Shown one piece after another: positions 3,145-18,093 of a DNA stretch of 64,000 nt. The stretch's first letter is position 1, and each line of letters begins with the position of its first letter. The position numbers and the translations under genes were made by a program. Under the pieces are notes generated by a model. It searched no databases. It was not told the origin of the DNA and worked only from the letters and a program-made list of their open reading frames with translations. This stretch comes from Pseudoduganella plicata (GTDB taxonomy: Bacteria; Pseudomonadota; Gammaproteobacteria; Burkholderiales; Burkholderiaceae_D). Location of the stretch: positions 372,001-436,000 of the forward strand of contig NZ_CP038026.1 in NCBI RefSeq assembly GCF_004421005.1, in the 5' to 3' direction.

Positions 3145-4588
3145 GGCGCGCTCTCCTGTGCCGGCGCATGCTGGTGGACGGGCAGGACCACGCGGAACCG
3201 GCTGCCTTCGCCGGGCGTGGACACCACGTCGATGTGCCCGCCATGGCGCTGGACGATGCCGTAGGACAGCGACAGGCCCAGGCCCGTGCCCTTGCCCACC
3301 TCCTTGGTGGTGAAGAACGGGTCGAAAATGCGCGGCAGTACATCGGCGGGGATGCCGCAGCCCGTGTCGGCGATCTCGATCCAGACGCGATCAATGCCTG
3401 CGCGGCCCGTCGCCACCGTGATGCGCCCGCGCCCGGCGCGGAGCGCGTGCGCGGCGTTGACGACGAGGTTCATCACCACCTGGTTGATCTGCACCGGCAG
3501 ACACTGGATATCGGGAATGTCGCCATACTCCTTGACGACGTCGGCCCGGTACTTGACTTCGTTGCCGACGATGTTGAGCGTCGAGTCGATGCCCTGGTGC
3601 AGGTTGGCCCAGACCCAGTCCTGGTTGCCTTCGGCTCGCGAGAAGTCCTTCAGGTCCTGGACGATATGGCGCACCCGCACGATGCCCTCGCGCGACTCGG
3701 CCATTAACGCCGGGATGTCCCCGCGCAGGAAGTCGAGATCGATCTGCTCGCGCATGGCCCGCAGCGCGCCCGCATCGGCCATGTCCGCTTCGGCGCGCGC
3801 ATATTCGTCGAGCATCGCCAGCAGTTGCTCGAAGTAACCCTGCAGCGTCGTGAAGTTGGAGAAGATGTAGCCGATCGGATTGTTGATTTCATGGGCGACG
3901 CCGGCGGCCAGCTGGCCGATCGATGCCAGCTTGTCGGCCTGGACCAGTTGCTGCTGCGCGTGCGACAGGCGCTGGTTCAGTGCCGTCAGTTCCAGGTTGC
4001 TGCGCCGCAGTTCGGCCTCTGCCACGTGGCGCTGGCGGATGTCCTCCTGCAGCTGCTCGTTCATTTCAGCGAGTTGGGCAGTGCGCTGCTCCACCAGGTG
4101 GCCCAGGTTGTCGTGGGCACGGCGCAGCTCGTTCTCCGCGACGCGGCGGTCGGTCACGTCGCGCATCGTCTCGATCGCACCCACCACGCGGCCCGCCTGG
4201 TCGCGCAGCGGCGCGGCGGTGAAATGCAGCCAGTGACCGGCCGCGCCGATATTCGGAAAGAAGTCCTCCGCCTCGTAACCCCGGGGATCTGCGCCGAGCG
4301 GCGCCACTTGCCGGCATAGTGCTTTTCGATGGCCGCCTCGCCACCTTCGACGATCAGGTCGGCCAGCAAAGGCTGTTTATAACGGTACAACGCCTGCCAG
4401 TGGCGGTCCGTGCCGACCATTTCCACCTTGCTCCAGCCCAGCAGGTGCTCGCAGGCGCGGTTCCACTGCGTGATCACGTGGTCGGTGTTGATGGCAAACG
4501 TCGGCACCGGGTGGCCGTCGAAATAGTCCGACAGGGCCACGTCGCTGCCGTCCGGCAAGGTAGTGGAAAGGGGGGCGTGCCGGGTCAT
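3141..4588 (-). pseudogene. PAS-PAS sensor histidine kinase, interrupted by a one-base frameshift
   Basis: The product is split between two frames. The ATG at 4588 overlaps the HDOD gene stop (ATGA) and opens a PAS domain (DYFDGHPVPTFAINTD) that reads well to KWRRSAQIPG near 4283. The match then continues in another frame from YEAEDFFPNIG, with the end of the PAS domain (MRDVTDRR), a coiled coil, the H box (LASIGQLAAGVAHEINNP, His codon at 3891-3893), N box ([10 protein letters not shown]), G1 (DTGCGIP), F box (IFDPFFTTK) and G2 (GTGLGLSLS), ending at 3141. One extra base in the run CCCCGGGG at 4279-4286 would rejoin them (IPGGYEAED). It may be a sequencing error, a recent mutation or a phase-variable tract. 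Restored length is about 482 residues. The downstream frame alone could give a kinase lacking most of its PAS domain. Confidence 0.82.
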
Positions 4589-5430
4589 GACGCCAGGGCC
4601 CCGCACATTTCCCGGTACAGCTGCTCGGCTTCGCTGAACACGCCGTCCCAGGCGGCCTCGTCGAGAGCGAAGGCCCGCCAGACGGCCAACGACAGCGGCG
4701 GCGCCTGGTCATTTTCCGGGCCGCCCAGATCCAGCGCGTGCGCAAGCACGTTGGCCGCCTGCACCACGGTGGTCAGGTCGGCCGGCGCCAGGTCGTCATC
4801 CGGCAGCACCGTGTGATGCCCGGCCACGGCCGCCTGGATCTGCTGGGGAAATTTCCAGTGCGCAGCAAGGGCCGCGCCAACCGCGGCGTGGTCCGTGCCG
4901 AACAGCGCCTGCTCGGCCGTCGCGGCGGTGCAGTCATGCTCGCGCTGCCATGCGACCACCTGCGTGTACTCGTCCGGGAGGCGGGTCACCAGTACCAGCG
5001 TCCCCAGGTCGTGCAGCAGGCCGGCCGTGAATGCCGTTTCGACGTTCACGCGCAGGTGCCGCGCCAGCACCCGCGCGCAGACGGCGCTGGCGATGGCGTG
5101 GCGCCAGAACGCGGGAAAGTCGAACTGCCCGCCGGGGCGCGGCGCGAAACTGGCCGTGACGGAGCACGCGGTCACCAGCGTGCGGATGGCGTGAAAGCCC
5201 AGCACCGAGACCGCCTGGGCGATGCTGGTGACCTTCGACTGCAGGCCATAGAACGACGAGTTGGCCAGGCGCAGCGTCTTGGCCGTCAGCGCCTGGTCCT
5301 GCGTGATCCGGGCCGCCAGCGCGTGCGTGTCGATGTCCTCCTGCTCCATCGTTGCGAGCAGCTCGGCCACGATTCCGGGCAGCGAAGGCAGGTCGCGCAC
5401 GCTGCGGATGATGTCTTCCGGTCTTTTCAT
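4585..5430 (-). CDS. HDOD domain protein
   Basis: 281 residues, essentially one HDOD domain, a non-hydrolysing relative of the HD family found in signalling proteins. Diagnostic segments are LPSLPGIVAELL at the start, TLRLANSSFYG, ISxAV-like SIAQAVSVLGFHAIRTL, and the residual HD motif AGLLHDLGTLVL, followed by GTDHAAVGAALAAHW and VAGHH. No receiver or effector domain is attached. It lies between the small protein and the histidine kinase, with ATGA overlaps on both sides (5427-5430 and 4585-4588). Known HDOD proteins act as scaffolds or regulators in chemotaxis and biofilm signalling; a role linking the kinase to the cyclic-di-GMP enzymes of this operon is inference. Confidence 0.9.
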   Translation of the reverse strand: MKRPEDIIRSVRDLPSLPGIVAELLATMEQEDIDTHALAARITQDQALTAKTLRLANSSFYGLQSKVTSIAQAVSVLGFHAIRTLVTACSVTASFAPRPGGQFDFPAFWRHAIASAVCARVLARHLRVNVETAFTAGLLHDLGTLVLVTRLPDEYTQVVAWQREHDCTAATAEQALFGTDHAAVGAALAAHWKFPQQIQAAVAGHHTVLPDDDLAPADLTTVVQAANVLAHALDLGGPENDQAPPLSLAVWRAFALDEAAWDGVFSEAEQLYREMCGALAS

Positions 5431-5753
5431 GGCGCCACCTCGTCGCCGCCGCGGAATGCGCGCAGCCGGGCCAGCAGCAGGGCGCCGCCGGGTGTCGTGC
5501 CGACGTGGCGGAACAGCTGTTCCAGCCGGCGCAGCCGGCGCTCGCGTTCCCGTCGCAGCTCGGCGTCATCGACCGCCGCTTCCATCACGACCACGCAGCG
5601 CTGCACCCCGCGCCGGCGCAGCGCGCCCAGCAGGCTGTCCGTCAACGTGGCATTGCGCGGCACCAGTACGGCACCACCGTCGTCGAGCAGATCCTGCGCC
5701 AGCGTCATGCCGGCCGTGGCCTCGTCGAGGTCGATTTCGCTGGAACTGTTCAT
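5427..5753 (-). CDS. Small signalling-operon protein with GMxLAxDL module
   Basis: 108-residue protein whose ATG at 5753 overlaps the stop of the EAL gene and whose stop overlaps the HDOD start. The N-terminal half (EIDLDEATAGMTLAQDLLDD, then GGAVLVPRNATLTDSLLGAL) matches a short beta-rich module often attached to HD-domain proteins, and resembles the C-terminus of the receiver-HD-GYP protein of the same operon. The C-terminal half is a highly charged helix (RRERERRLRRLEQLF). No catalytic motif is visible. A longer in-frame reading to 6251 exists but only mirrors the EAL gene and is rejected. The function is unknown; its place in the overlap chain argues that it is a genuine partner. Confidence 0.75.
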   Translation of the reverse strand: MNSSSEIDLDEATAGMTLAQDLLDDGGAVLVPRNATLTDSLLGALRRRGVQRCVVVMEAAVDDAELRRERERRLRRLEQLFRHVGTTPGGALLLARLRAFRGGDEVAP

Positions 5754-7444
5754 GACGCCTCCGTCCGGCTCAAGGTAATCAGGCTGCCGCGCGAGGCCGA
5801 GTGCTCGCCCATCGGATAGACGACGACAGCGTAGCGCTGGCCGTCGATCTCGGCCATGTGCGTGCGGCTGCTCTGGCCGGCGGCGCTGCCGGCATCGTCC
5901 GGCGGGAACAACTGCGGCAGCACGATGCCGGCCTCGTTGCCCAGCAAGGCGCTCTCGTGCCGGAACAGCGTCTCGGCCGCGCCGTTGATGAAGGCGATCA
6001 TGCCGGCGTCGTCCATCCCGATCACAGGCAGTGGCAGGTGGCGCAGCAGCTCGCGGGCCACGTTCAGGCTGATCTCGTCGCGGCTGATCTGGCGCTGCTT
6101 CTCCGCCAGCAGCTGTTTCATGCGACGGTTGGCCGCGGCCAGCTCCTGGTTGGCCGTACGCACCTCCAGGTTCAGGCGCAGGTTTTCGTCGGCGATTTCC
6201 TTGACCCGGAATGCTTCGGCGATGTGGCCGCGCAGCTGCTCGTCGTCCCATGGCTTGGTGAGAAACTTGTAGATCGCCCCTTCGTTGACGGCATCGGTGA
6301 CCGATTGCAGCTCCGTGTAGCCGGACAGCATGATGCGGATGGTGTCCGGATACCGTTCCTTCGCCTTGCGCAGGAAGTCGGCGCCCATCATTCCGGGCAT
6401 GCGCTGGTCGGAGACGATGACGTCCACGGGCTGTTCGGCCAGCAGATCCAGGCCCTGCTGGCCGCTGTGGGCGGTATGAATCTGATATTGCTCGCTGCGC
6501 AGCAGGCGCTTCAGTGCGGACACGATATTCGCCTCGTCGTCCACCAGCAGCAGGCGGCGCAGCGGCTTATGCATGCGCAGCAGGTGCGGCGGCAGTGCGC
6601 GTCCCTCCGCCAGCAGCAGGTCGATGCCGTCCGGCGTCAGGGGCCGGGCAAAGAACCAGCCCTGGATGAAGTCGCACATATTGCGGCGCAGGAAGTCGCA
6701 CTGGCTTTCCGTTTCCACGCCCTCGGCCACCACGTGCATGCCCAGGTGGTGCGCCATCGCGACGATGGTGCGGCACATGGCCGCGTCGTCGCTGTCGGTG
6801 ACGACGTCGCGAACGAAGCGCGCATCGATCTTGAGGGCATCGAAGGCATAACGCTTCAGGCTGTTCAGCGACGAGTGGCCGGTACCGAAATCGTCCAGCG
6901 TCAGGTGCAGGCCAAGCACGCGGCAGCGCGCCAGCAGGGCGTCGCAGTCCGCGCCCGCCTCGGTCAGGGCCGTTTCCGTGATTTCCAGCGCCAGTTGCGA
7001 CGGGTCGATGCCGCAACGCTGCATGGTCTGCGCGACGAACGTGCCGAACTCCGGGTCGCGGAACTGGACCGGCGCCACGTTGATGGCCAGCTTGACCGCA
7101 CCGCTGCCGTGATCGCGCCAGTGCCGCGCATCGTGGCACGCGCGTTCCAGCACCCAGCGGCCAACGGCCGCGGTCATGCCCGCGGCGTCGATCGCGGCCA
7201 TGATCTGGCCCGCTTCCAGAAGTCCATGGCGCGGGTGCTGCCAGCGCAGCAGCGCTTCCAGGCTGGCAATGGCGCCGGTTTGCAGGTCGACGAGGGGTTG
7301 ATACAGCAGGGTCAGCTCGTCCTCGGCGATGGCGCGGCGCAAGGCGGCGCCGACATCCTCGCCGGCAAACGACGGTGGTGCGGACATGCCGCCGGCGGCG
7401 CAGAGAGCGGTAGGGCCTGCCGGGGAGCGCTCGGCTGGAAGCAT
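5750..7444 (-). CDS. EAL cyclic-di-GMP phosphodiesterase with receiver and PAS domains
   Basis: 564 residues, in an unusual order with the enzyme first. EAL domain at about 30-285 with the full catalytic set: Glu63 (EALLRW), Asn122 (INVAPVQF), Glu154 (EITET), Asp184-Asp185 (DDFGTG), Lys205 (KID), Glu241 (AEGVET) and Gln261 (QGWFFARPL). An active phosphodiesterase degrading cyclic di-GMP to pGpG is expected. A receiver follows at 296-415 (Asp346 in DVIVSDQRMP, LTKPW), then a coiled coil (420-455) and a C-terminal PAS-like domain (about 460-560). First gene of the six-gene minus-strand operon. The ATG at 7444 is taken; an internal ATG at 7387 is also possible and neither has a clear Shine-Dalgarno sequence. 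Confidence 0.92.
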   Translation of the reverse strand: MLPAERSPAGPTALCAAGGMSAPPSFAGEDVGAALRRAIAEDELTLLYQPLVDLQTGAIASLEALLRWQHPRHGLLEAGQIMAAIDAAGMTAAVGRWVLERACHDARHWRDHGSGAVKLAINVAPVQFRDPEFGTFVAQTMQRCGIDPSQLALEITETALTEAGADCDALLARCRVLGLHLTLDDFGTGHSSLNSLKRYAFDALKIDARFVRDVVTDSDDAAMCRTIVAMAHHLGMHVVAEGVETESQCDFLRRNMCDFIQGWFFARPLTPDGIDLLLAEGRALPPHLLRMHKPLRRLLLVDDEANIVSALKRLLRSEQYQIHTAHSGQQGLDLLAEQPVDVIVSDQRMPGMMGADFLRKAKERYPDTIRIMLSGYTELQSVTDAVNEGAIYKFLTKPWDDEQLRGHIAEAFRVKEIADENLRLNLEVRTANQELAAANRRMKQLLAEKQRQISRDEISLNVARELLRHLPLPVIGMDDAGMIAFINGAAETLFRHESALLGNEAGIVLPQLFPPDDAGSAAGQSSRTHMAEIDGQRYAVVVYPMGEHSASRGSLITLSRTEAS

Positions 7445-7513
7445 CGGAGTCCCGTGATCGGTTGACGGAACAAGCGCAGCGGCTCCACCATGGAACCGCT
7501 GCCTTGCAGGCCG

Positions 7514-7519
7514 ATTATA
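7514..7519 (-). promoter_or_regulatory. Candidate -10 box for the signalling operon
   Basis: On the minus strand the sequence reads TATAAT, a perfect sigma-70 -10 hexamer, about 70 bases upstream of the EAL gene start. No convincing -35 hexamer is placed at 16-18 bases, so this is only a candidate. The surrounding gap (7445-7616) holds nothing else that I recognise. Confidence 0.25.
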
Positions 7520-7616
7520 TGCCCGTGTCGGAGCCGCGTGCGCCAGTCCGGCACCATGCCGACATAAGTGTTGCTGGGTGGAAACGGAATGTTGGCAGCG
7601 TGCTACCGGTGTGCCT

Positions 7617-8585
7617 TCAGCGTGCTGCCAGCGCGCCCCAGATGGCCTTCATCGCAAAGCGCAGGTCGGCGTCGTCCTCCGTCAAGGCACGCACGATATC
7701 GTCCTCCGAGTCGAGGCGGCGCACGTCCGGCGGCACCAGCGTCTGCCCGGCGCCGTTGCGCAGGCAGGCCACTTCCGGGCCTGTGCCGGCCAGTGCCGGA
7801 CGGTAGGTGACGACGCCCGTTTCGCCGCATTGCAGTTCCACCAGCGTGCCCGGAGGGTAGCTGCCGATATGGACGGCGAATGCGGTTGCCAGCACCGTAT
7901 CGTGGGCCACGGCGGCGCTCGTCAGTTCGGCCAGCGCCAGATCGGGCGACTGCGAGCGGCGATAGTTGCGCGCCGAGACGCGGGCGCACCACCGGTCGGC
8001 CAGACGAAGCAGCCGTGCGCCGCGCGGGATCTCGTGCGCACCCAGGCCATGCGGATAGCCGCTGCCGTCGTCGTCCTCGTGGTGGTGCAGTACGCTGGCC
8101 AGCCACTCCTCGTCGCCGATGCCGGCGCAGGCCAGCAGGCGGGCGCCATCCTCGGGATGGCGACGCAATCGGGCGCGCTCCTCGCCCGTCAGGCCCTCGC
8201 CCGCAAGCGACACGCGGCTGTTGAAGGTGTCGTGCGCATCGAGCATCGCGCAGTTCATCGTCAGCGCGGCGCCGGCCACGGCGGCCAGGCTGTCCTCCCC
8301 CAGGCCGATACCGCGGCCGACGATAGCGACGACGACAGCCGTCTCCACGCAATGGCGCACGGCATAGCTGCCGGCGATCTGGTTCAGCAGCACGCACGCC
8401 AGCGCCACGTCCTGGCCCATGTCGACGGTATGCAGCAGGTCGCGCGCCAGTTCGCGCAGCGCCGGTGCGGCCTCGCGGGCATCCTCGAGGCGTGCCAGCT
8501 GATGCTCCAGGCGGCGGTGCAGCTCGTTCAGCCCGCGCAGCACCGACGGCGCGGTCCCGGTGACTTCGGCGTGGCGGGCATCCAT
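7617..8585 (-). CDS. HD-GYP family protein lacking the HD pair
   Basis: 322 residues from the ATG at 8585. The C-terminal two thirds follow the HD-GYP fold: His143-Pro, then HHHEDDDGSGYPHGL (167-181) and GARLLRLADRW. The normally invariant HDxGK is replaced: the segment AGAALTMNCAML has Met110-Asn111 where His-Asp should be and no Lys. The metal site is thus incomplete, the mirror image of the defect in the receiver-HD-GYP protein at 1819. No receiver domain is attached. The gene begins two bases after the stop of the aminotransferase gene, so the two are very likely co-transcribed and translationally coupled. The longer in-frame extension to 8783 only mirrors the aminotransferase and is rejected. 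Confidence 0.82.
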   Translation of the reverse strand: MDARHAEVTGTAPSVLRGLNELHRRLEHQLARLEDAREAAPALRELARDLLHTVDMGQDVALACVLLNQIAGSYAVRHCVETAVVVAIVGRGIGLGEDSLAAVAGAALTMNCAMLDAHDTFNSRVSLAGEGLTGEERARLRRHPEDGARLLACAGIGDEEWLASVLHHHEDDDGSGYPHGLGAHEIPRGARLLRLADRWCARVSARNYRRSQSPDLALAELTSAAVAHDTVLATAFAVHIGSYPPGTLVELQCGETGVVTYRPALAGTGPEVACLRNGAGQTLVPPDVRRLDSEDDIVRALTEDDADLRFAMKAIWGALAAR

Positions 8586-8587
8586 CG

Positions 8588-9769
8588 CTACACCCGGGCC
8601 AGCCGGTCCAGGGCGAGGCGCAGCGTGTCGTCCTGCTTGGCAAAGCAGAAGCGCACGACGCGCGACTCGACGCCGCCCCGGTAGAACGGCGCGACGGGAA
8701 TGGCGGCGACCTTGATCTCCGCCGCCAGCCATTCGGCAAACGCCACCTCCGGCAGGTCGGAGATGGCCCCGTAACGCACGCACTGGAAATACGTGCCGTC
8801 CGCCGGCAGCAGCTCGAAGCGGCTGGCCGCCAGGCCGGTGCGGAACAGGTCGCGCTTGCGCTGGTAGAAATCCGGCAGCTCGCGCCAGGGCCGCGGGTCG
8901 GCCATGTAGGCGGCGATGCCGTGCTGCATGGGCGCGTTCGTGGAGAACACGTTGTACTGGTGGACCTTGCGGAACTCCGCCATCAGCGGCGCCGGTGCCG
9001 CCACGTAGCCGATCTTCCAGCCCGTGACGTGGAACGTCTTGCCGAAGCTGGAGACGACGAAGCTGCGCGCGGCCAGCACGGCATGGCGGCTCATCGACTC
9101 GTGGCGAGCGCCGTCATAGACCATGTGTTCGTAGACTTCGTCGGCCAGGATCAGGATGCCGGTGCCTTGCACGATGGCGCTCAGGGCGTCGATATCGGCC
9201 TGGCGCAGCACCGTCCCGGTGGGGTTGTGCGGCGTGTTGATGACAAGCAGGCGCGTTTTCGGCGTCACGGCCGCCGCGATCCTGTCCCACGGGATGGCAT
9301 AGCAAGCGTCCGTGAGCGTCATCTGGACCAGCACGGGCACGCCGCCCGCCAGTTCCACGGTGGGCAGGTAGCTGTCGTAGGCCGGTTCGATGATGATGAC
9401 TTCGTCGCCCGGATGCACGCAGCACAGGATGGCCGTCGTCAGCGCCTGCGTGGCACCGGCGGTGACGGTGATTTCCGTGTCGGCGTCGTACTGGCGGCCG
9501 TAGGTGGCGGCGATCTTGGCGGCGATGGCCTGGCGCAGCGCCGGTACACCCGTCATCATCGGGTACTGGTTGAAGCCGGCGCGCATGGCTTCGGTGACGG
9601 CGTCGACGAGCCGCGCGTCGCAGGCGAAGTCGGGGAACCCTTGCCCCAGGTTGACGGCGCCATGCTGCGCGGCCAGCATCGACATGTGCGTAAATACGGT
9701 GGTGCCGACACTGGGCAGGCGGGAGACGATGGCCGGCGTTACCGGGCCGGCGGGGGAAGTCGTGGACAT
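8588..9769 (-). CDS. PLP-dependent aminotransferase (class I/II, YbdL-like)
   Basis: About 393 residues. Fold-type I aminotransferase of the group containing E. coli YbdL (methionine aminotransferase) and kynurenine transaminases. Seen: INLGQGFPDF-like VNLGQGFPDF, MTGVPALRQAIA, the cofactor site TAGATQAL, the substrate motif NTPHNPTG, DEVYEHMVYD, the PLP lysine in SSFGKTFHVTGWKIGY, and the C-terminal arginine region VVRFCFAKQ. It would move an amino group between an amino acid such as methionine or an aromatic and a keto acid. The start ATG at 9769 (MSTTSPAG) matches where homologues begin; an upstream in-frame ATG at 9802 would add eleven residues. It is followed two bases later by the HD-GYP gene. 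Confidence 0.9.
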   Translation of the reverse strand: MSTTSPAGPVTPAIVSRLPSVGTTVFTHMSMLAAQHGAVNLGQGFPDFACDARLVDAVTEAMRAGFNQYPMMTGVPALRQAIAAKIAATYGRQYDADTEITVTAGATQALTTAILCCVHPGDEVIIIEPAYDSYLPTVELAGGVPVLVQMTLTDACYAIPWDRIAAAVTPKTRLLVINTPHNPTGTVLRQADIDALSAIVQGTGILILADEVYEHMVYDGARHESMSRHAVLAARSFVVSSFGKTFHVTGWKIGYVAAPAPLMAEFRKVHQYNVFSTNAPMQHGIAAYMADPRPWRELPDFYQRKRDLFRTGLAASRFELLPADGTYFQCVRYGAISDLPEVAFAEWLAAEIKVAAIPVAPFYRGGVESRVVRFCFAKQDDTLRLALDRLARV

Positions 9770-9832
9770 GGGTTGTCGTAATGTGGCTGGTGGTCGTTCC
9801 ATTCTAGCGCAGCCGGCGGGCGCCGGGCCGCA

Positions 9833-10291
9833 TCAGACGGCCGTTGCAGGCGGCGTCCATTTTTCCGGCAGGATGACCCTGAACATGCCGGCTTTTTCCA
9901 GCCGTTTTGCCAGCTTGAGCAGGGCCTTGTCCTTCGTGATCAGCGTGCCGGCGCCCGCGTCGCGCGCCAGTTCCAGGAATTTCTGGTCGTCCGGGTCGGT
10001 GCAGACGGGCAGCCGCACGCCCGATTCGGGCGGTTGGACCACCTTGATCAGCGCGTCGAACCTGGCCGCCGCCAGCGGACGCGTGCTGTCGTCCAGCGGC
10101 AGGTGAGGGTAGTGCAGCACGATGTTGTATTCGTCGCGGCAGTCGGCGCGGGTGATCGCCTCGACCGTGCCGCTTTCCAGCGCGGCCAGCAGGGCGGCCC
10201 AGCGCGGGTCGTGGAACACGAACAGATCGAGGCAGACGTTCGTGTCGATAACGATGCGGTCCGGCAAGCTTTGGGTTGAAGCGGGTATCAT
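9833..10291 (-). CDS. PIN-domain protein, putative toxin-type RNase
   Basis: 152 residues, one PIN domain of the family annotated as putative toxin-antitoxin component. Acidic metal-site residues are visible in [11 protein letters not shown], in CRDEYNIVL and in [13 protein letters not shown], followed by [15 protein letters not shown] domains are magnesium-dependent RNases. No antitoxin-like DNA-binding gene lies next to it: upstream is the divergent yaaA 41 bases away, downstream the aminotransferase. Start: ATG at 10291 (MIPASTQ) is preferred to the upstream in-frame start at 10357, which would run into yaaA. Either an orphan nuclease or part of a system whose partner is elsewhere. Confidence 0.8.
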
Positions 10292-10332
10292 GTGGGAATT
10301 CTTGTTTTCAAGTATGTCTGGTTCCGAATCAT

Positions 10333-11100
10333 ATGCTGATAGTGCTTTCCCCCGCAAAAAGTCTCGACCTGGAGACGCCTTCTCCCACCCCCCACGCCAC
10401 CGAACCCGCGTTTCTCGATCATTCCGAGCAGCTGATCGCCCGGTTGCGCGACTTCTCGCCGGCCCAGCTGGCCGAGCTGATGGACCTGTCGGACGCGCTG
10501 TCCGCGCTGAACGTGGGCCGTTATGCGTCGTGGACGAAATCCACCGCCGAAGGCCGCCAGGCCGTGATGACGTTCAATGGCGACGTGTACGACGGCCTGG
10601 CGGCCCGCACGATGGCGCCATCGCAGCTGGACTATACGCAGTCGCGCGTGCGCATCCTGTCGGGCCTGTATGGTCTGCTGCGTCCCCTGGACCTGATCCA
10701 CCCGCACCGGCTGGAAATGGGCACGCGACTTGCCAACCCGCGCGGCAAGGATCTGTATGCGTTCTGGGGCGACACGATTACCGACGCGCTCAACGCCGCG
10801 GCGAAGGAACAGGGCGCGCAGTACCTCGTCAACTGCGCTTCCGAGGAGTATTTCAAGTCCGTGCGCAAGGCCAAGCTGGCCGTGCCCGTCATCACGCCCG
10901 TCTTCGAGGAATGGAAGAACGGCAAGTACAAGATCATCTCGTTCTATGCCAAGCGCGCCCGCGGCATGCTGGCCCGCTATGCGGCCGATCGGGGCATCAC
11001 CGAGCCGGAGGGGCTCAAGTCGTTCGATGTGGAGGGGTATGGGTTCGATGCGGGCGCTTCGAACGACACCACGTGGGTGTTCAGGCGCAAGGTGGCTTGA
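10333..11100 (+). CDS. yaaA: Peroxide stress protein YaaA (DUF328)
   Basis: 255 residues covering the whole YaaA family. Diagnostic segments: [12 protein letters not shown] at the start, [75 protein letters not shown] and [12 protein letters not shown]. In E. coli YaaA limits damage from hydrogen peroxide by lowering free iron; a DNA-binding fold has been described. ATG at 10333 gives the standard N-terminus; an in-frame ATG at 10276 would add 19 untypical residues. It is divergent from the PIN gene, so the 41-base gap must hold both promoters. Confidence 0.95.
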
Positions 11101-11119
11101 GGAAACGATCGGAGAGAAG

Positions 11120-11524
11120 ATGATGTTTCGATTCGATTTACGCTTGCTCGGGATTGCGCTTCTGTGCGGCTCATTCGCGGGGCGGACTGCGTTTGCCCAG
11201 GAAGCCGAGCATCCGACGCATCAAGCGGACAGATCGGCTCGTGTCAACCTCCCAGGGTGCGCCAGGCCCCAATATCCCCGTTCCGCGCTGTTGTTAGAAG
11301 CGGAGGGTACCGTCACGCTGTCCTATTTGATCGGCGCCGATGGCACGGTAAAGGAGTCGAGAGTATTTCGGTCGAGTGGCAATGCAGAACTTGACGAGGC
11401 CGCCCGTATTGCGCTGGCAAAATGTCGATTCGATCCGGCGGTAGTTGATGGCCAGCCTGTCGAGGCATGGACAAAGATGCAATATCTCTGGAAGCTCGAC
11501 GCAAGGCCGATGTACTCTTTCTAG
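11120..11524 (+). CDS. Periplasmic TonB C-terminal domain protein
   Basis: 134 residues. A cleavable signal peptide is apparent (positively charged start, LLGIALLCGSFAG, likely cut after TAFA). The mature part is a TonB_C-type domain: CARPQYPRSALLLEAEG, TVTLSYLIGADGTV, SGNAELDEAARIAL, CRFDPA and a closing WTKMQYLWKL. There is no membrane anchor or proline-rich spanner, so it is not a full TonB; such stand-alone proteins are common and their role is unclear. A good Shine-Dalgarno sequence (GGAGAG) precedes the ATG at 11120. It follows yaaA by 19 bases. Two mirrored cysteines could form a disulfide. Confidence 0.8.
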   Translation: MMFRFDLRLLGIALLCGSFAGRTAFAQEAEHPTHQADRSARVNLPGCARPQYPRSALLLEAEGTVTLSYLIGADGTVKESRVFRSSGNAELDEAARIALAKCRFDPAVVDGQPVEAWTKMQYLWKLDARPMYSF

Positions 11525-11627
11525 GCATCGGTGGCACGGCTGTGGCCCTGAGACACACGGGGCGTCTCAGCGCACTGTGCGCGTGAGCAGGCCACCGAGA
11601 CTGGATGGCTTTCGGCGCCAGAAAGTC

Positions 11628-11681
11628 GGGGACAGGCACCAATCTTCGCGTCTCCCGACTCGGAGATTGGCGCCTGTCCCC
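11628..11681. repeat. GGGGACAG-type inverted repeat, copy A
   Basis: An imperfect palindrome with 18-base arms (17 of 18 matching) at 11628-11645 and 11664-11681, separated by 18 bases. The arms begin GGGGACAGGCACC. It sits in the convergent gap between the TonB-like gene and bamD. Three related elements occur in this window (26319, 30752, 32528). As RNA it would form a strong hairpin readable from both strands, so it could end transcription from either side. The rest of the gap (11525-11735) shows nothing else. Confidence 0.8.
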
Positions 11682-11735
11682 AGCTATCGCAAGTGCCGCA
11701 GGCTCATTTTTTGATCGCCGCGCACTGCGCGACGA

Positions 11736-12539
11736 TCACCCCCAGAACTTCCACCACTTGCGTTCGGGCTTCGGCGCGCCTTCCTCGATGAATTTCGAGT
11801 TCGGGAAGTTCTGCTTGAAGACGCGCATCGCGTCGTCGCGCAGGGCGGTGTTGCCCAGTTTGTCGTAGCTGCGTGCCATGATCCACAGCGCTTCCTCGAT
11901 CGACGGCGAGTCGCGGTAGTCGCGCACGGCGTCCTGGGCGCGGTTGGCGGCGGCCAGGTAGGCGCCGCGGCGGTAGTAGTAGCGCGCCACGTAGACTTCG
12001 TACTTCGCCATCGCGTTGATCAGGTACTTCATCCGCTCGACGGAGTCCGGCGCGTATTTGCTGTTCGGGAATTTGTCGACCAGCGCCTTGAACGCGGCAA
12101 ACGCTTCGCGCGTGGCTTTCGGATCGCGCTCGGCCGGATCCTGTTCGTAGACGAAGTTCAGCAGGCTCAGCTGGTCATTGAAGTTGACCAGGCCACGCAG
12201 GTAGTACATGTAGTCCACGTTCGGGTGATTCGGGTGCAGCTTGATGAAACGCTCCACGGCGGCCAGCGCCTGGGCCTGGTCCTGTGCCTTGTAGTAGGCG
12301 TAGGCCACTTCCATCTGCGCCTGTTGCGCGTACACGCCGAACGGATAGCTCGCTTCCAGCTTCTCGTACAGCTGAATTGCACGCTCGTAGTGCTGGCCGG
12401 CCATTTCTTCCTTGGCCTCCGAGTATAATTTCGTTGCGGACCAACCTTTGGTCTCATCGGTCTGCTCAGGTAACAGGCCGCAGGCCGACAGACTGAGCAG
12501 TAAAACCGATGCTGCCACCACCTTGATTTTTTTTTGCAT
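11736..12539 (-). CDS. bamD: Outer membrane assembly lipoprotein BamD
   Basis: 267 residues. Essential lipoprotein of the BAM complex that folds beta-barrel proteins into the outer membrane. The signal peptide ends in the lipobox LSAC with lipidated Cys20. TPR-like helical pairs follow: KLYSEAKEEMAGQHYERAIQ, YEKLEASYPFG, AQMEVAYAYYKAQDQAQA, FIKLHPNHPNVDYMYYLRGL, and FKALVDKFPNSKYAPDS. The C-terminus ends KPERKWWKFWG. Start: ATG at 12539 (MQKKIK) puts the signal peptide at the end; the in-frame ATG at 12566 would add nine residues. It is divergent from rluD, 65 bases apart, as in many betaproteobacteria. Confidence 0.95.
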   Translation of the reverse strand: MQKKIKVVAASVLLLSLSACGLLPEQTDETKGWSATKLYSEAKEEMAGQHYERAIQLYEKLEASYPFGVYAQQAQMEVAYAYYKAQDQAQALAAVERFIKLHPNHPNVDYMYYLRGLVNFNDQLSLLNFVYEQDPAERDPKATREAFAAFKALVDKFPNSKYAPDSVERMKYLINAMAKYEVYVARYYYRRGAYLAAANRAQDAVRDYRDSPSIEEALWIMARSYDKLGNTALRDDAMRVFKQNFPNSKFIEEGAPKPERKWWKFWG

Positions 12540-12604
12540 GTTCTCGTGCAAGAAGACGTTTAACAAGATACTACACTAGGCTGATTATAGCCGATGGGAA
12601 TGCC

Positions 12605-13717
12605 GTGAAATTGAACACTGTGCCGAATCCGGCCGACGAACTGCCCGATCACGATTTTGACGCCGATTTCGATGGCGAGTTCCCGGCCGAAATCGCCGCT
12701 GAATTACCGGGCTTTGCCGCGCCGCTGGCCCCGATCGAACTGGAGCTGACGCCGGAAGCGTGCGGCGAGCGCCTGGACAAGGTGATCGCGAAACTCGTCC
12801 CGCAATTCTCGCGCGGCCGGCTGCAAAGCTGGATCGAGGAGGGCTTCGTCACCGTGGACGGCAAGCCGGCCAAGGTGCGTGCCACCGTTTACGGTGACGA
12901 AAAAATCGTCGTGCTGCCGCAGGCGGCGCCGGAAGACGTGGCGTTCACGCCCGAGGAAATGGACCTGAACGTCGTGTTCGAGGACGACCACCTGATCGTC
13001 ATCAACAAGCCAGCCGGGCTTGTCGTCCATCCGGGCGCGGGCAACTGGTCCGGCACGCTGCTGAACGGCCTGCTGCACCGCTGGCCGCAACTGGGCGGCG
13101 TGCCGCGCGCGGGCATCGTCCACCGTCTCGACAAGGATACCTCCGGCCTGATGGTTATCGGCAAGGACCTGCCGACCCAGACGGACCTCGTCCGCCAGTT
13201 GCAGGCGCGTACCGTCAAGCGCGAATACTGGGCGCTGGTGTGGGGCACGCCGCGCCTGTCGGGAACCATCGACGCGTCGATGGGCCGCGATCAGAAGAAC
13301 CGGGTCAAGATGGCGGTGTCGACCAGCCTGGGCTCGAAGCCGGCCATCACGCACTACCAGCGCCTCGAGTCGGGCGAGCTGGACCGCCGTCCAGTGACGC
13401 TGGTGCAGTGCCGCCTGGAGACGGGCCGCACGCACCAGATCCGCGTCCACATGGCGCACCTGGGTTTCCCGCTGGTGGGCGATTACGTCTACGGCAAGCC
13501 GCACCTGACGGGCGTGTTCCACCGCCAGGCGCTGCAGGCGCGCCGCCTTGGGCTGACGCACCCGGCCACGGGCGCAGCCTGCGAATGGATCATCCCGCTG
13601 GCCGACGACTTCCGCGCGCTGCTGGATCAGGCAGGCATCGAGGAGCCGCCCGAGACGGTCATCGGCGACGACTACGAGGATGCCGAGGACGACTACGACT
13701 ACGATGACGAGGCGTGA
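12605..13717 (+). CDS. rluD: 23S rRNA pseudouridine synthase RluD
   Basis: 370 residues. Converts uridines 1911, 1915 and 1917 in helix 69 of 23S rRNA to pseudouridine. An S4 RNA-binding domain (about 60-115: ERLDKVIAKLVPQFSRGRLQ, then SWIEEGFVTVDGKP) precedes the RluA-type catalytic domain with VVHPGAGNWSGTL, the catalytic motif GIVHRLDKDTSGLM with its Asp, and ETGRTHQIRVHMAH. The first 45 residues are acidic and variable, and the last 20 are very acidic (DDYEDAEDDYDYDDEA). GTG start at 12605. The stop overlaps the pgeF start region (GTGATCATG at 13714). Confidence 0.95.
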   Translation: MKLNTVPNPADELPDHDFDADFDGEFPAEIAAELPGFAAPLAPIELELTPEACGERLDKVIAKLVPQFSRGRLQSWIEEGFVTVDGKPAKVRATVYGDEKIVVLPQAAPEDVAFTPEEMDLNVVFEDDHLIVINKPAGLVVHPGAGNWSGTLLNGLLHRWPQLGGVPRAGIVHRLDKDTSGLMVIGKDLPTQTDLVRQLQARTVKREYWALVWGTPRLSGTIDASMGRDQKNRVKMAVSTSLGSKPAITHYQRLESGELDRRPVTLVQCRLETGRTHQIRVHMAHLGFPLVGDYVYGKPHLTGVFHRQALQARRLGLTHPATGAACEWIIPLADDFRALLDQAGIEEPPETVIGDDYEDAEDDYDYDDEA

Positions 13718-14517
13718 TCATGCGCAATCGCAACAGCGTGCAGTTCCTGGACCCGGACTGGCCCGACCTGCCTGAATCGGTCGGCGTGCTGTGCACCACG
13801 CGCCGCGGCGGCGTCAGCCCCGCGCCGTATGACGACGGGCAGGGCAAGGGCGGCCTGAACCTGGGCGTGCATGTGGGCGATTCGCCTCGCTGCGTCGAAC
13901 GCAACCGCGATATCGTGCGCGCCGAGCTGCCGGCCGAACCCGTCTGGCTGTCGCAGGTGCACGGCACGGCGGTCATCGACGCCGGTACCGTCGACGTGCT
14001 GGCCCATGCGCCCGCGCCGACAGCGGATGCCAGCTATGCGCGCGAGCGCGGCGTCGTCTGCGCCGTGCTGTCGGCCGACTGCCTGCCGGTGCTGTTCTGC
14101 GATGCGGCCGGTACGATGGTGGCTGCGGCGCATGCAGGCTGGCGCGGTCTGGCCGAAGGCGTGCTGGAAAACACGGCCACTGCGATGTACGGGGCCGGCG
14201 CACGCGATTTGCGAGCGTGGCTCGGGGCGGCCATCGGTCCGGCCAAATTCGAGGTCGGCTCGGAGGTGCTGGCGGCGTTTCTGGTACGCGCCGAAGGGCA
14301 TGAGGATCTTGTCCGCGCCGCGTTCGTGCCCGTGCCCGAGCGTCCCGGCAAGTATCTGTGCAACCTGTATGCACTGGCCCGCATCGCGCTGCAGCGCGCA
14401 GGCGTGCACCGGATTACCGGCGGCGACTTCTGCACCGTCTCGAACTCCGGCCGCTTTTACTCCTACCGCCGCGACGGCGTGACGGGCCGCCAGGCCAGCC
14501 TGATCTGGCTCAGGTAG
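13714..14517 (+). CDS. pgeF: Peptidoglycan editing factor PgeF (YfiH, laccase-domain family)
   Basis: 267 residues. Member of the YfiH/COG1496 family, which removes wrongly incorporated residues during peptidoglycan precursor synthesis; purine nucleoside phosphorylase activity has also been shown for relatives. The metal-site motifs are visible: WLSQVHGTAVID, VLSADCLPVLFCD, AAHAGWRGLAEGV, the GAAIGPAKFEVG loop and GGDFCTVSNSGRFYSYRRDG. The first possible start is GTG at 13714, overlapping the rluD stop by four bases; ATG at 13720 (MRNRNSV) is equally plausible. Its 3' end overlaps the opposite-strand membrane protein gene by eight bases. Confidence 0.93.
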   Translation: MIMRNRNSVQFLDPDWPDLPESVGVLCTTRRGGVSPAPYDDGQGKGGLNLGVHVGDSPRCVERNRDIVRAELPAEPVWLSQVHGTAVIDAGTVDVLAHAPAPTADASYARERGVVCAVLSADCLPVLFCDAAGTMVAAAHAGWRGLAEGVLENTATAMYGAGARDLRAWLGAAIGPAKFEVGSEVLAAFLVRAEGHEDLVRAAFVPVPERPGKYLCNLYALARIALQRAGVHRITGGDFCTVSNSGRFYSYRRDGVTGRQASLIWLR

Positions 14518-14710
14518 TCGTGTCGTCGGCAGCCCGCGCCGCGGCCGCGCGCTGCCGTTTGCGCCGTTTGCCACCGGTCACATAGAATAGAATGCCCAGT
14601 GGCAGGGCACAGTACAGCAGGAACGTCATGATGCCCGCCACCACGGTGGGTTCGGTCAGCGCCATCAGCAGCACGACATAGATCCAGGCAAGCGCAGTCA
14701 TCAGAAGCAT
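14510..14710 (-). CDS. Small two-span membrane protein
   Basis: 66 residues from the ATG at 14710. Two hydrophobic helices (MLLMTALAWIYVVLLMAL and ITFLL-like GIMTFLLYCALPLGILFYV) are followed by a strongly basic tail (GGKRRKRQR) and a Thr-rich end. The topology suggests a tiny inner-membrane protein with a cytoplasmic C-terminus. I recognise no named family, but proteins of this form often sit in front of phaC in related genomes (recalled, not checked). It is divergent from phaC by 46 bases. Confidence 0.6.
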   Translation of the reverse strand: MLLMTALAWIYVVLLMALTEPTVVAGIMTFLLYCALPLGILFYVTGGKRRKRQRAAAARAADDTTT

Positions 14711-14756
14711 AGATTCAGATTGTAGTCTTCGGTAACAAAGATCAATTCTAAATGGA

Positions 14757-16480
14757 ATGCACATGAACAAGCCCGACCCGCAAGCGATCGCTTCCGCATG
14801 GATGTCCCAGCTCAGCGATCCGAATCACTGGCAGTCCTGGTTCCGCATGATGCCCGATATGAATGCCATGCCGGGCGCCGCGCTGCTGCGCGACGCCGGC
14901 GCCGCCATCCGTCCGGATGCGCTGGAGGCACTGAAGAACCAATACATCGCCGAGTTCGGCGCGCTGTGGCAGGAGTTCCTGGCCGGGCGCGCCCCGCAAG
15001 TGAAGGACCGCCGGTTTGCGGCGGATGCGTGGACAGCCAATCCCGTCTCCGCCTTCAATGCGGCCGCCTACCTGCTCAATGCGAAATTCCTGATCGCGAT
15101 GGCCGACGCCGTCGAGGCGTCGCCGCACCAGAAACAGAAGATCCGCTTTGCCGTGCAGCAACTGGTCGACGCGATGTCGCCCGCGAACTTCCTGGCGACC
15201 AACCCGGAAGCGCAGCAGAAGCTGATCGAAACGAAGGGCGAAAGCCTGACCAAGGGGCTGGCCAATATGCTGGCGGACATGCGCCGCGGCCATATTTCGC
15301 AGTCCGACGAAAAGGCGTTCGAGGTGGGCCGCAACCTGGCCACGACGGAAGGCCAGGTCGTGTATGAAAACGCGCTGTTCCAGCTGCTGCAGTACAAGCC
15401 GCTGACGGCCAGGGTGCGCGAACGGCCGCTGCTGATGGTGCCGCCGTGCATCAACAAATACTACATCCTCGACCTGCAGCCGGACAATTCCCTGGTCCGC
15501 TACGCCGTCGAGCAGGGCAATACCGTGTTTCTGGTCTCGTGGCGCAATCCGGATGCGTCGCTGGCGCAGAAGGGCTGGGACGACTACACGGAGGAGGGCG
15601 TCATCGAGGCCATCCGTGTCACGCGGGAAATCAGCGGCGCTGACCAGCTCAACACGCTCGGTTTCTGTGTAGGCGGCACGTTGCTGGCTGCCGCGCTGGC
15701 CGTGCTGGCGGCGCGGGGCAGCAGCCAGCCGCCAGCGTGACGTTGCTGACGACGTTCCTGGACTTCTCCGATACGGGTGTGCTGAGCGTATTCGTCGATG
15801 AAGCGCAGGTGGCGCTGCGCGAACAGGCGCTGGGGCGGGGCGGGATCATGCCGGGGCGCGACCTGGCCAGCACGTTCTCCAGCCTGCGACCGAACGACCT
15901 TGTATGGAATTACGTGCAGTCGAACTACCTGAAGGGCAACGAGCCGCCGCCGTTCGACCTGCTGTTCTGGAATGCCGATTCGACCAACCTGCCGGGGCCG
16001 ATGTTCTGCTGGTACCTGCGCAATACGTATCTCGAAAACAACCTGAAGGAGCCGGGCAAGCTCACCGTTGCCGGCGAGAAGATCGACCTGGGTGCGATCG
16101 ATGCACCGGCCTTTGTCTACTCGTCGCGCGAGGACCATATCGTGCCGTGGCAGTCGGCGTTCGCCTCGACGGCGATCATGAATCCCGGCCGGCGCGAGCG
16201 CAACCGCTTCGTGCTGGGCGCTTCCGGCCATATTGCCGGCGTCATCAATTCGCCGGCAAAGAAAAAGCGCAGCTACTGGATCAACGATACGCCTGGCATC
16301 GGGGTGGACGGCTGGCTGGCGGGTGCTACCGAGCATCCCGGCAGCTGGTGGCCTGAGTGGGCCGCCTTCCTGGCGCAACATGGCGGTAGCGAGGTCAAGG
16401 CGCCCACGAAATTGGGCAACGCGACATACAAGCCCATCGAGCCCGCACCTGGCCGTTACGTCAAGGAAAAGGCCGAGTAA
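14757..16480 (+). pseudogene. phaC: Class I poly(3-hydroxyalkanoate) synthase PhaC, broken by a frameshift
   Basis: Polymerises (R)-3-hydroxyacyl-CoA into polyester granules. The product is split: 14757-15740 carries the N-terminal domain and the nucleophile elbow GFCVGG with the catalytic Cys; after ALAVLAARG it runs into a stop at 15738. The match resumes in another frame from about 15733 (ASVTLLTTFLDFSDTG) to 16480, carrying the catalytic Asp (SREDHIVPW) and His (ASGHIAGVINSP). Adding one base near 15730 would rejoin them (QPASVTLL) to about 574 residues, the usual class I length. As sequenced, neither fragment holds the complete triad. The break lies in a GC-rich repeat (GCAGCCAGCCGCCAGC), a likely site for a sequencing or assembly error, but a real loss of function cannot be excluded. 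phaR follows. Confidence 0.88.
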
Positions 16481-17304: not shown

Positions 17305-17332
17305 AAGCCGGCCTCGTGCCGGCTTTTGTTTT
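17305..17332 (+). terminator. Rho-independent terminator of phaR
   Basis: A perfect 8-base stem AAGCCGGC / GCCGGCTT with a 5-base loop is followed by TTGTTTT. It lies 22 bases after the phaR stop and before the convergent gene that ends at 17368. Confidence 0.85.
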
Positions 17333-17367
17333 GTCGGCCGCGGGTTGCGCCGCCGGCGCATGGGCAG

Positions 17368-17988
17368 TCAGTCCGGCCCCGCCAGAATCGCCGCTTGCCT
17401 GTCTTTCAGGTAGGGATGCGCCTCCAGCAGCCTTGCGACCTCCTGTTCGATCCTCGCGATCGCACCATTCATCCACTCGAGATGGTCTTCGACATCTTTC
17501 GCCAGCTTTGCCGATCCGTCGCGCCGCAGCTGATCGAGATGCCTCGCCTCCGATTCCCGCAACTTCCGATACGCCGTCAGAGACTCGAGCGACACCTTCA
17601 GCAGGCGCTCCTCCAGCGGAGGCGGAATCCATGGGCCGGGGTTATTGGCGGCACAGTAGCGGGCAAGGGCCTTGGCGTCCGCCGCCGGGCTCGTCGCGGT
17701 CCTGGTGGCCGGTGTGGCCAATCCTTCCACAGCCGCACGATCCACCCGGCTGACAGTGGCGCCACTGTCGTGTAACGCCATTGCAAAGGCGCGCGCGTGG
17801 TCATCCGCCGCCTCGACACACACGTGCAGCGCGCCCGGTACGACACCCTGCTTGTCCAGCCAGGTCGTCAGTTCAGCCAGCGGCTTCTGCTCGCCCGCGA
17901 GCGCTTTCGTCTTCATCTTGCCATCGACAAGGAGCGCGACATTCCACTTGCACGCCGTGCCTTTGATCCCCAGGGTTGCTCCCGTCAT
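17368..17988 (-). CDS. Stand-alone protein resembling the DEDD half of an IS110 transposase
   Basis: 206 residues from an ATG at 17988 with a good Shine-Dalgarno sequence (AGGAGA). The pattern follows the N-terminal DEDD domain of IS110-family transposases: a GIxxxK..VALLVDGKMKTK strand region, LTTWLDKQG, HVCVEAADDHARAFAMALHD, GATVSRVDRAAVEGLA, then AADAKALARYC and PWIPPPLEERLL, and a coiled helix pair (LTAYRKLRESEARHL, ARIEQEVARLLEAHP). The first catalytic Asp (normally IDVSK) is missing (GIKGTA); the Glu and the later Asp appear kept. The C-terminal transposase_20 domain with the catalytic Ser is absent. No terminal repeats or second half are present, so it is a remnant or a domesticated protein. 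Confidence 0.65.
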   Translation of the reverse strand: MTGATLGIKGTACKWNVALLVDGKMKTKALAGEQKPLAELTTWLDKQGVVPGALHVCVEAADDHARAFAMALHDSGATVSRVDRAAVEGLATPATRTATSPAADAKALARYCAANNPGPWIPPPLEERLLKVSLESLTAYRKLRESEARHLDQLRRDGSAKLAKDVEDHLEWMNGAIARIEQEVARLLEAHPYLKDRQAAILAGPD

Positions 17989-18093
17989 CTCGTCTCCTGC
18001 AAGCCATCGGTTTCGCATGATGATAGCCGACGCCCCGGTCGCCACGCCAACTGTCGCGCAGGTGGAAACGTCACCACACTTCCGCGATATTTG

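What the first reader, a model, noticed from the sequence alone, without database searches (positions are those of the whole stretch)
17368..17988. Possible domesticated IS110 DEDD domain
The ORF has an intact reading frame and a clear ribosome site, yet lacks the second half of IS110 transposases and the first catalytic Asp. Loss of these with frame preservation suggests selection for a new use, perhaps nucleic-acid binding. IS110 transposases work with bridge RNA, so a retained RNA-binding role is possible.
Basis: partly seen in the sequence, partly recalled or inferred. Interest (0 to 1): 0.55.

Follow-up and report, generated by a model that had tools for sequence, protein, structure and literature searches.

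The report
Dead, shortened IS110 protein kept by bacteria
A jumping-gene enzyme has been cut down to its non-cutting half and kept as an ordinary single-copy gene by a group of environmental bacteria, where it probably works by sticking to other proteins or DNA, perhaps to block the jumping genes it came from.

Summary
The ORF is real (window 17368-17988, minus strand, 206 aa): an IS110 recombinase reduced to its RuvC-like and coiled-coil domains. Two catalytic Asp are lost, not one (K9, P101; E59 and D104 remain), and the serine/RNA-reading Tnp domain is missing. The predicted fold (pLDDT 89.5) aligns to IS621 residues 4-217 at Z 20.2. It is one of a family of about 200-225 aa: 0 of 35 short rows have intact DEDD, against 27 of 28 other IS110 rows. 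Thirty of 40 Janthinobacterium genomes carry one copy; 29 of 29 loci examined lie beside a DAHP-synthase gene, with dN/dS 0.40 (bootstrap 0.31-0.48). Domestication is thus well supported for the family. For the focal copy it is inferred: five relatives lack it at this site, the highest identity is 38%, and dN/dS cannot be measured. A retained bridge-RNA role is not supported, because the RNA-reading domain is gone. I favour a non-catalytic dimeric protein, perhaps a poison subunit against IS110 elements; genomic support for that job is weak (p = 0.066, uncorrected for kinship).

The parts
17368..17988 (-). Focal CDS, 206 aa plus stop: catalytically dead RuvC-like domain plus coiled coil of IS110 descent
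17620..17988 (-). RuvC-like part (residues 1 to about 123); K9 at the D1 place, E59, P101 at the D3 place, D104
   Evidence: alignments to RuvC and TsaB folds end by residue 123
17419..17616 (-). Two-helix coiled coil (residues 125-190), equivalent to the dimerising part of IS621
   Evidence: predicted helices 125-157 and 160-190; role in IS621 from PMC11208158 (passages)
17994..17998 (-). Shine-Dalgarno-like AGGAG, 5 nt before ATG
17330..18055 (.). Stretch not shared with the same phaR-beta-glucosidase gap in G008, G010, G011 and G024 (ends approximate, read from the alignment; most of it is the focal gene; G003 has unrelated DNA there)

Best explanation
The ORF belongs to a small family of domesticated IS110 recombinase stubs, so far seen only in the window's own family of bacteria (Oxalobacteraceae for Janthinobacterium). 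An IS110 gene lost its C-terminal Tnp domain and the first catalytic Asp, and what was kept is a RuvC-like domain plus the two-helix coiled coil. In IS621 the coiled coil makes the dimer and RuvC-RuvC contacts join two dimers, so the retained parts are the assembly parts. Shown: the architecture, the loss of the catalytic tetrad, vertical inheritance and purifying selection in Janthinobacterium. Inferred: that the protein dimerises and acts by binding rather than by cutting or by RNA guidance. Inferred and weaker: that its job is to act as a poison subunit that mixes with, and blocks, IS110 recombinases. My estimates: domesticated family 0.85; focal copy itself functional 0.65; non-catalytic binding protein 0.75; poison-subunit job 0.35.
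For: Short rows: 0 of 35 have intact DEDD and 28 of 35 keep none of the four residues; of the 28 other rows 27 are intact. The cut falls after the coiled coil in both short clades. Tree: the short proteins form two well-supported clades (98/99 and 100/99), and one common clade is not rejected (p-AU 0.425). Thirty of 40 Janthinobacterium genomes carry one copy; 29 of 29 loci examined lie next to the DAHP-synthase gene (name). dN/dS median 0.39 over 276 pairs of 24 species, neighbour families 0.06-0.24; pooled by region RuvC 0.42, coiled coil 0.30, tail 0.56. Four copies from three genomes of the focal genus: ratios 0.26-0.45 from dN 0.18-0.32 and dS 0.54-1.23. Structure. For the poison-subunit job: PF02371 in 10 of 30 carriers against 7 of 10 non-carriers, Fisher p 0.066.
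Against: The focal copy has no close orthologue, a long branch (1.27) and atypical codon usage, so it could be drifting. The p of 0.066 (0.094 by rank test) is uncorrected for kinship, four of the ten non-carriers are one clade, and some PF02371 matches are fragments. Carriers can hold many IS110 copies (13 matches in G310, 10 in G272). Net charge differs between the clades (mean +3.4 in Janthinobacterium, -5.5 in the focal genus, 0 for the focal protein), so a shared nucleic-acid surface is doubtful. The gene is dispensable: presence and absence need 6 changes on a 38-species tree, at least 4 forced by well-supported branches. Dimerisation was not modelled.
Confidence: 0.45

Rival explanations
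1. Domesticated scaffold or DNA-binding regulator with a host job unrelated to IS110 elements, like other non-catalytic RuvC-fold proteins (for example the Nop5 N-terminal domain).
For: Twenty of 30 Janthinobacterium carriers and the focal genome have no PF02371 match; the place next to the DAHP-synthase gene is stable; Foldseek also ranks TsaB/YeaZ and RuvC after the IS110 structures. The inactive RuvC of Nop5 is described in PMC12045711 (passages).
Against: Evolves faster than all six neighbour families measured (dN/dS 0.39 against 0.06-0.24) and sits at three unrelated places in the focal genus, which is odd for a core host function. No partner identified.
Confidence: 0.35
2. RNA-guided regulator: the stub still uses a bridge-like RNA to find DNA, as TldR proteins use a guide.
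For: Descent from an RNA-guided recombinase. The Janthinobacterium proteins are basic (mean pI 8.7).
Against: The Tnp domain that recognises bridge-RNA bases is absent (IS621 facts from PMC11208158 passages); no Rfam match; in 25 of 29 Janthinobacterium loci the upstream gap (103-170 nt) is shorter than 177 nt, and the median downstream gap is 66 nt; the focal protein and its genus relatives are neutral to acidic. An RNA made elsewhere in the genome was not looked for.
Confidence: 0.07
3. Decaying relic of a transposase, kept open by chance.
For: Fits the focal copy's long branch and weak codon score. Broken IS110 copies do occur in the genus: G033, G067 and G015 hold recent ones.
Against: Those recent broken copies still have DEDD but have scrambled ends, the opposite of the short family. 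In Janthinobacterium 22 of 24 core genes keep 224-225 aa at median dS 0.36 although 3% of random single changes are nonsense, and dN/dS is well under 1.
Confidence: 0.13

Closest known systems
IS110-family bridge-RNA recombinases (IS621 8wt6/8wt9, ISCro4 9t56)
   Same: RuvC-like domain and coiled coil in the same order and fold: Z 20.2, rmsd 5.1, 198 aligned residues, model 2-205 to chain 4-217
   Different: No Tnp domain or catalytic Ser, DEDD broken, no bridge RNA found, 206 aa rather than 300-460 (length from PMC11208160 passage), single copy
TldR and other nuclease-dead proteins derived from TnpB (TnpB origin recalled, from no call)
   Same: A transposon-derived RNA-guided enzyme that lost catalysis and was kept
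   Different: TldR is an RNA-guided transcription factor (abstract start of PMC13418256, search listing); here the RNA-reading domain itself is gone
Truncated transposases acting as inhibitors, e.g. the Tn5 inhibitor protein (recalled, from no call)
   Same: A shortened transposase that keeps its oligomerisation part
   Different: The Tn5 inhibitor is made by the element itself; this is a separate chromosomal gene at a fixed host site in Janthinobacterium
Nop5/Nop56/58 and TIGR-Tas
   Same: RuvC fold plus coiled coil; inactive RuvC in Nop5 (PMC12045711, passages); TasR 9mty is a weak fold match
   Different: The Nop RNA-binding domain that defines them is absent here

Membership tests
IS110-family transposase/recombinase | Homology over the RuvC-like domain | tested here: met
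   Profile E 2e-37 to IS621, 5.3e-38 to ISCro4; NF033542 in 14 of 14 members at E <= 0.01, focal far under its cut-off
IS110-family transposase/recombinase | Intact DEDD tetrad | tested here: not met
   Focal K9, E59, P101, D104; 0 of 35 short rows intact
IS110-family transposase/recombinase | C-terminal Tnp domain PF02371 with catalytic Ser | tested here: not met
   No match in the ORF or in the whole genome; three full-length controls score 83-90 bits
IS110-family transposase/recombinase | Bridge RNA in the non-coding end | tested here: inconclusive
   No Rfam match; flanks short in 25 of 29 Janthinobacterium loci; no bridge-RNA covariance model was built
IS110-family transposase/recombinase | Pfam PF01548 match | tested here: not met
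   Focal: 0 Pfam families at E <= 1; 7 of 14 members of A1 match PF01548 at E <= 0.01
Domesticated transposase-derived gene (Janthinobacterium family) | Single copy at a conserved host locus | tested here: met
   30 of 40 genomes with one copy, 29 of 29 loci examined next to the DAHP-synthase gene
Domesticated transposase-derived gene (focal copy) | Single copy at a conserved host locus | tested here: not met
   Single copy, but no copy at that site in G003, G008, G010, G011 or G024
Domesticated transposase-derived gene (Janthinobacterium family) | Purifying selection on the protein | tested here: met
   dN/dS 0.40, bootstrap 0.31-0.48
Domesticated transposase-derived gene (focal copy) | Purifying selection on the protein | not testable with these tools
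   No relative above 38% identity in 74 genomes of the genus
TIGR-Tas / Nop proteins | Nop RNA-binding domain | tested here: not met
   The chain ends 16 residues after the second long helix; no Pfam domain

The most novel reading that the evidence does not exclude
The family is a host-kept restriction factor against bridge-RNA recombinases: a dead RuvC/coiled-coil stub that joins the tetramer of an invading IS110 enzyme and poisons synapsis, and whose fast change reflects an arms race with those elements. That would be the first natural inhibitor of bridge recombination known to me.
Probability: 0.3. Interest if true: 0.8.

Novelty: new variant of a known kind. Interest (0 to 1): 0.52.

Why it matters
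Kept, nuclease-dead descendants are known for other RNA-guided transposon enzymes (TldR; abstract start seen, TnpB origin recalled). My searches of the open-access paper library showed none for IS110; subscription papers and preprints are mostly not in that library. This family kept the assembly half and lost both the RNA reader and catalysis, so it is a natural test of what the RuvC/coiled-coil half can do alone. If it blocks IS110 recombination it would be a natural off-switch for bridge-RNA genome-writing tools.

Tried and rejected
Split gene working with a Tnp domain elsewhere: rejected, the genome has no PF02371 match. Phage or defence gene: PADLOC gives nothing for three of four proteins and one weak hit for the fourth (E 0.012); PHROGs says only transposase for all four at its best match; two viral-contig scans confirmed no relative. 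Spread outside the family: in 300 genomes of the order 28 matched, the own genome included. Of the nine best hits other than the own one, seven have frames of 332-379 aa and two of 266 and 272 aa were not examined, nor were shorter frames lower in the list; absence of the short form outside the family is therefore not proved. Close orthologue of the focal copy: none in 74 genomes of the genus, and the named-genome scan with the focal protein found nothing. Fewer IS110 in carriers: p 0.066 and 0.094, not significant. The charge comparison gave no consistent nucleic-acid signature. Strict Shine-Dalgarno patterns matched 15 of 29 upstream stretches; by eye all 25 with a true ATG have a G-rich purine run there, and the other four starts were set by alignment only.

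Corrections and dropped rows. One search read minus-strand loci on the wrong strand and is superseded. The beta-glucosidase reference was translated one base out of frame, so its positions stand but its identities do not; the seed for that gene was also out of frame, and with the right frame gave the same scores. Six of 69 rows (from L013, L022, two of L023, L047, L056), cut by contig ends or frameshifts, were dropped before the 63-row tree and the tetrad count. L015 (G008) has its first 40 residues in another frame, so its D1 letter is an alignment artefact; the stretch in that other frame is 85% identical to G024's. L039 is the one other row without D1; its start is misaligned. The 28 'other' rows include two broken transposases (L012, L014). 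In one search the printed gap of 535 for L165 used a second ybiB piece; the table gives about 148.

Full report
What is there. Window 17368-17988 on the minus strand is an intact 206-codon frame with ATG and AGGAG. By itself it matches no Pfam family at E <= 1 and only weakly the NCBIfam IS110 model (3.6e-7, 29.6 bits, cut-off 140). In a profile with 13 relatives it hits the solved ISCro4 (9t56, 5.3e-38) and IS621 (8wt6, 2e-37) recombinases over chain residues 5-202 and 6-201. The AlphaFold2 model (20 sequences, pLDDT 89.5, pTM 0.75) has the strand and helix order of an RNase-H/RuvC fold followed by two long helices. Foldseek's first eleven matches are ISCro4 and IS621 chains (E 2.9e-12 to 1.1e-10), and VIA-align gives Z 20.2 (rmsd 5.1) to 8wt9_B with model 2-205 on chain 4-217. 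A Janthinobacterium relative (pLDDT 86.9) also has only IS621 and ISCro4 chains as its first eleven matches. According to PMC11208158 (passages seen) IS621 has RuvC 1-122, coiled coil 123-188 and Tnp 189-326; the coiled coil dimerises, RuvC-RuvC contacts join two dimers, Tnp domains recognise conserved bridge-RNA bases, and mutation of D11, E60, D102, D105 or S241 abolishes recombination. The focal protein thus keeps the assembly half and lacks the RNA reader and the catalytic Ser. In the tetrad it has K9, E59, P101 and D104.

It is one of a family. I searched 74 genomes of the genus (17 with a match) and 392 of the family (69 with a match; that search scored at most eight candidates a genome). 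The hits fall into full-length IS110s and a second class of about 200-225 aa. After dropping six of 69 non-redundant rows cut by contig ends or frameshifts, 0 of 35 short rows have an intact DEDD and 28 keep none of the four residues, whereas 27 of 28 other rows are intact. One short row (G008) has its N-terminus in another frame and its D1 letter is not informative; G008 also shows riboflavin synthase in two frames, so a sequencing error is likely. Recent broken transposases in G067, G033 and G015 keep DEDD but have scrambled ends, the opposite pattern.

Tree. On 63 rows the short proteins form two clades, six from the window's genus (98/99) and 29 from a second genus (100/99). A single short clade is not rejected (p-AU 0.425), so one or two domestications are both possible. 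D1 is K, E, H, N or A in different branches, as expected if the residues drifted after an early loss.

Janthinobacterium. The second genus is Janthinobacterium: 19 of 19 named loci, NCBI family Oxalobacteraceae. Thirty of 40 genomes carry one short copy. In 29 of 29 loci examined it lies directly upstream of a DAHP synthase gene (gap -88 to 138 nt, median 66), and in 27 of 29 within 520 nt of ybiB on the other side (names). In nine of the ten non-carriers the two neighbours are found together without it (about 107-294 nt apart; the tenth, G385, is a fragmented assembly and not resolved). On a 38-species tree of the two neighbours presence and absence need six changes, at least four forced by well-supported branches, so the gene is old in the genus and was lost repeatedly.

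Selection. Over 276 pairs of 24 species median dN/dS is 0.39 against 0.06-0.24 for six neighbour families; pooled 0.40, bootstrap 0.31-0.48 (40 sampled pairs, 60 resamples); RuvC 0.42, coiled coil 0.30, tail 0.56. This is purifying selection, strongest on the coiled coil, at a fast overall rate. In the window's genus the copies of G008 (in-frame part), G011 (two) and G024 give ratios of 0.26-0.45 with 57-71% amino-acid identity, while the riboflavin synthases of G008 and G011 are 96-99% identical to G024's.

The focal copy. In its genus five of 74 genomes have short copies: G000, G008, G010, G011 (two) and G024. The other four are also the closest to G000 by PhaR. Yet the copies sit at different places: phaR-beta-glucosidase in G000, beside or near ribE in G008, G011 and G024, elsewhere in G010. 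G003, G008, G010, G011 and G024 have no copy at the phaR site, and G000 and G010 none at the rib site. The focal copy therefore has short relatives in the genus at 28-38% identity but no positional orthologue, and its own selection cannot be measured. Its codon score favours the frame but is weak.

How it works. Shown: loss of catalytic residues and of the Tnp domain; conserved predicted fold; purifying selection in Janthinobacterium. Inferred: a dimer acting by binding. RNA guidance is unlikely: the RNA-reading domain is missing, 25 of 29 Janthinobacterium loci leave only 103-170 nt upstream, Rfam finds nothing in the window stretch, and mean net charge is +3.4 in Janthinobacterium but -5.5 in the window's genus. 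I favour a poison-subunit role against IS110 elements because the assembly parts are what remains and the gene evolves fast, but the genomic test is only suggestive (PF02371 in 10 of 30 carriers, 7 of 10 non-carriers, Fisher p 0.066, rank test 0.094, not corrected for kinship), and a host scaffold role is about as likely.

Novelty. No paper on a domesticated or shortened IS110 family of this kind surfaced in six searches of the open-access library (listings only, plus passages of PMC12045711, PMC11208160 and PMC11208158). The TIGR-Tas paper mentions truncated IS110-like proteins lacking RuvC and the inactive RuvC of Nop5; the passages I saw do not describe stubs lacking the Nop/Tnp half. I rate it a new variant of a known kind: a domesticated transposase remnant, here from a bridge-RNA recombinase.

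Noticed in passing
window 14757-16480 (+): The phaC gene is in two overlapping frames (14757-15740 and 15737-16480), while five relatives read N and C parts in one frame; a frameshift mutation or an assembly error.
   Followed up: partly
L120 (G008) and L122 (G024), phaR-beta-glucosidase gap; a shorter one in L119 (G011): Long palindromic repeats lie in the same gap in which the focal gene sits in the window's genome; IS110 elements often target repetitive elements (PMC11208160 passage).
   Followed up: no
L055 (G011), 4081-15591: Two short IS110-derived paralogues flank a tandem array of genes with Sel1 and DUF6396 domains; G008 and G024 have one copy beside a similar array.
   Followed up: no
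L059, L120 and L157 (G008): Several genes, riboflavin synthase among them, appear in two frames, which suggests residual sequencing errors in that single-contig genome.
   Followed up: partly
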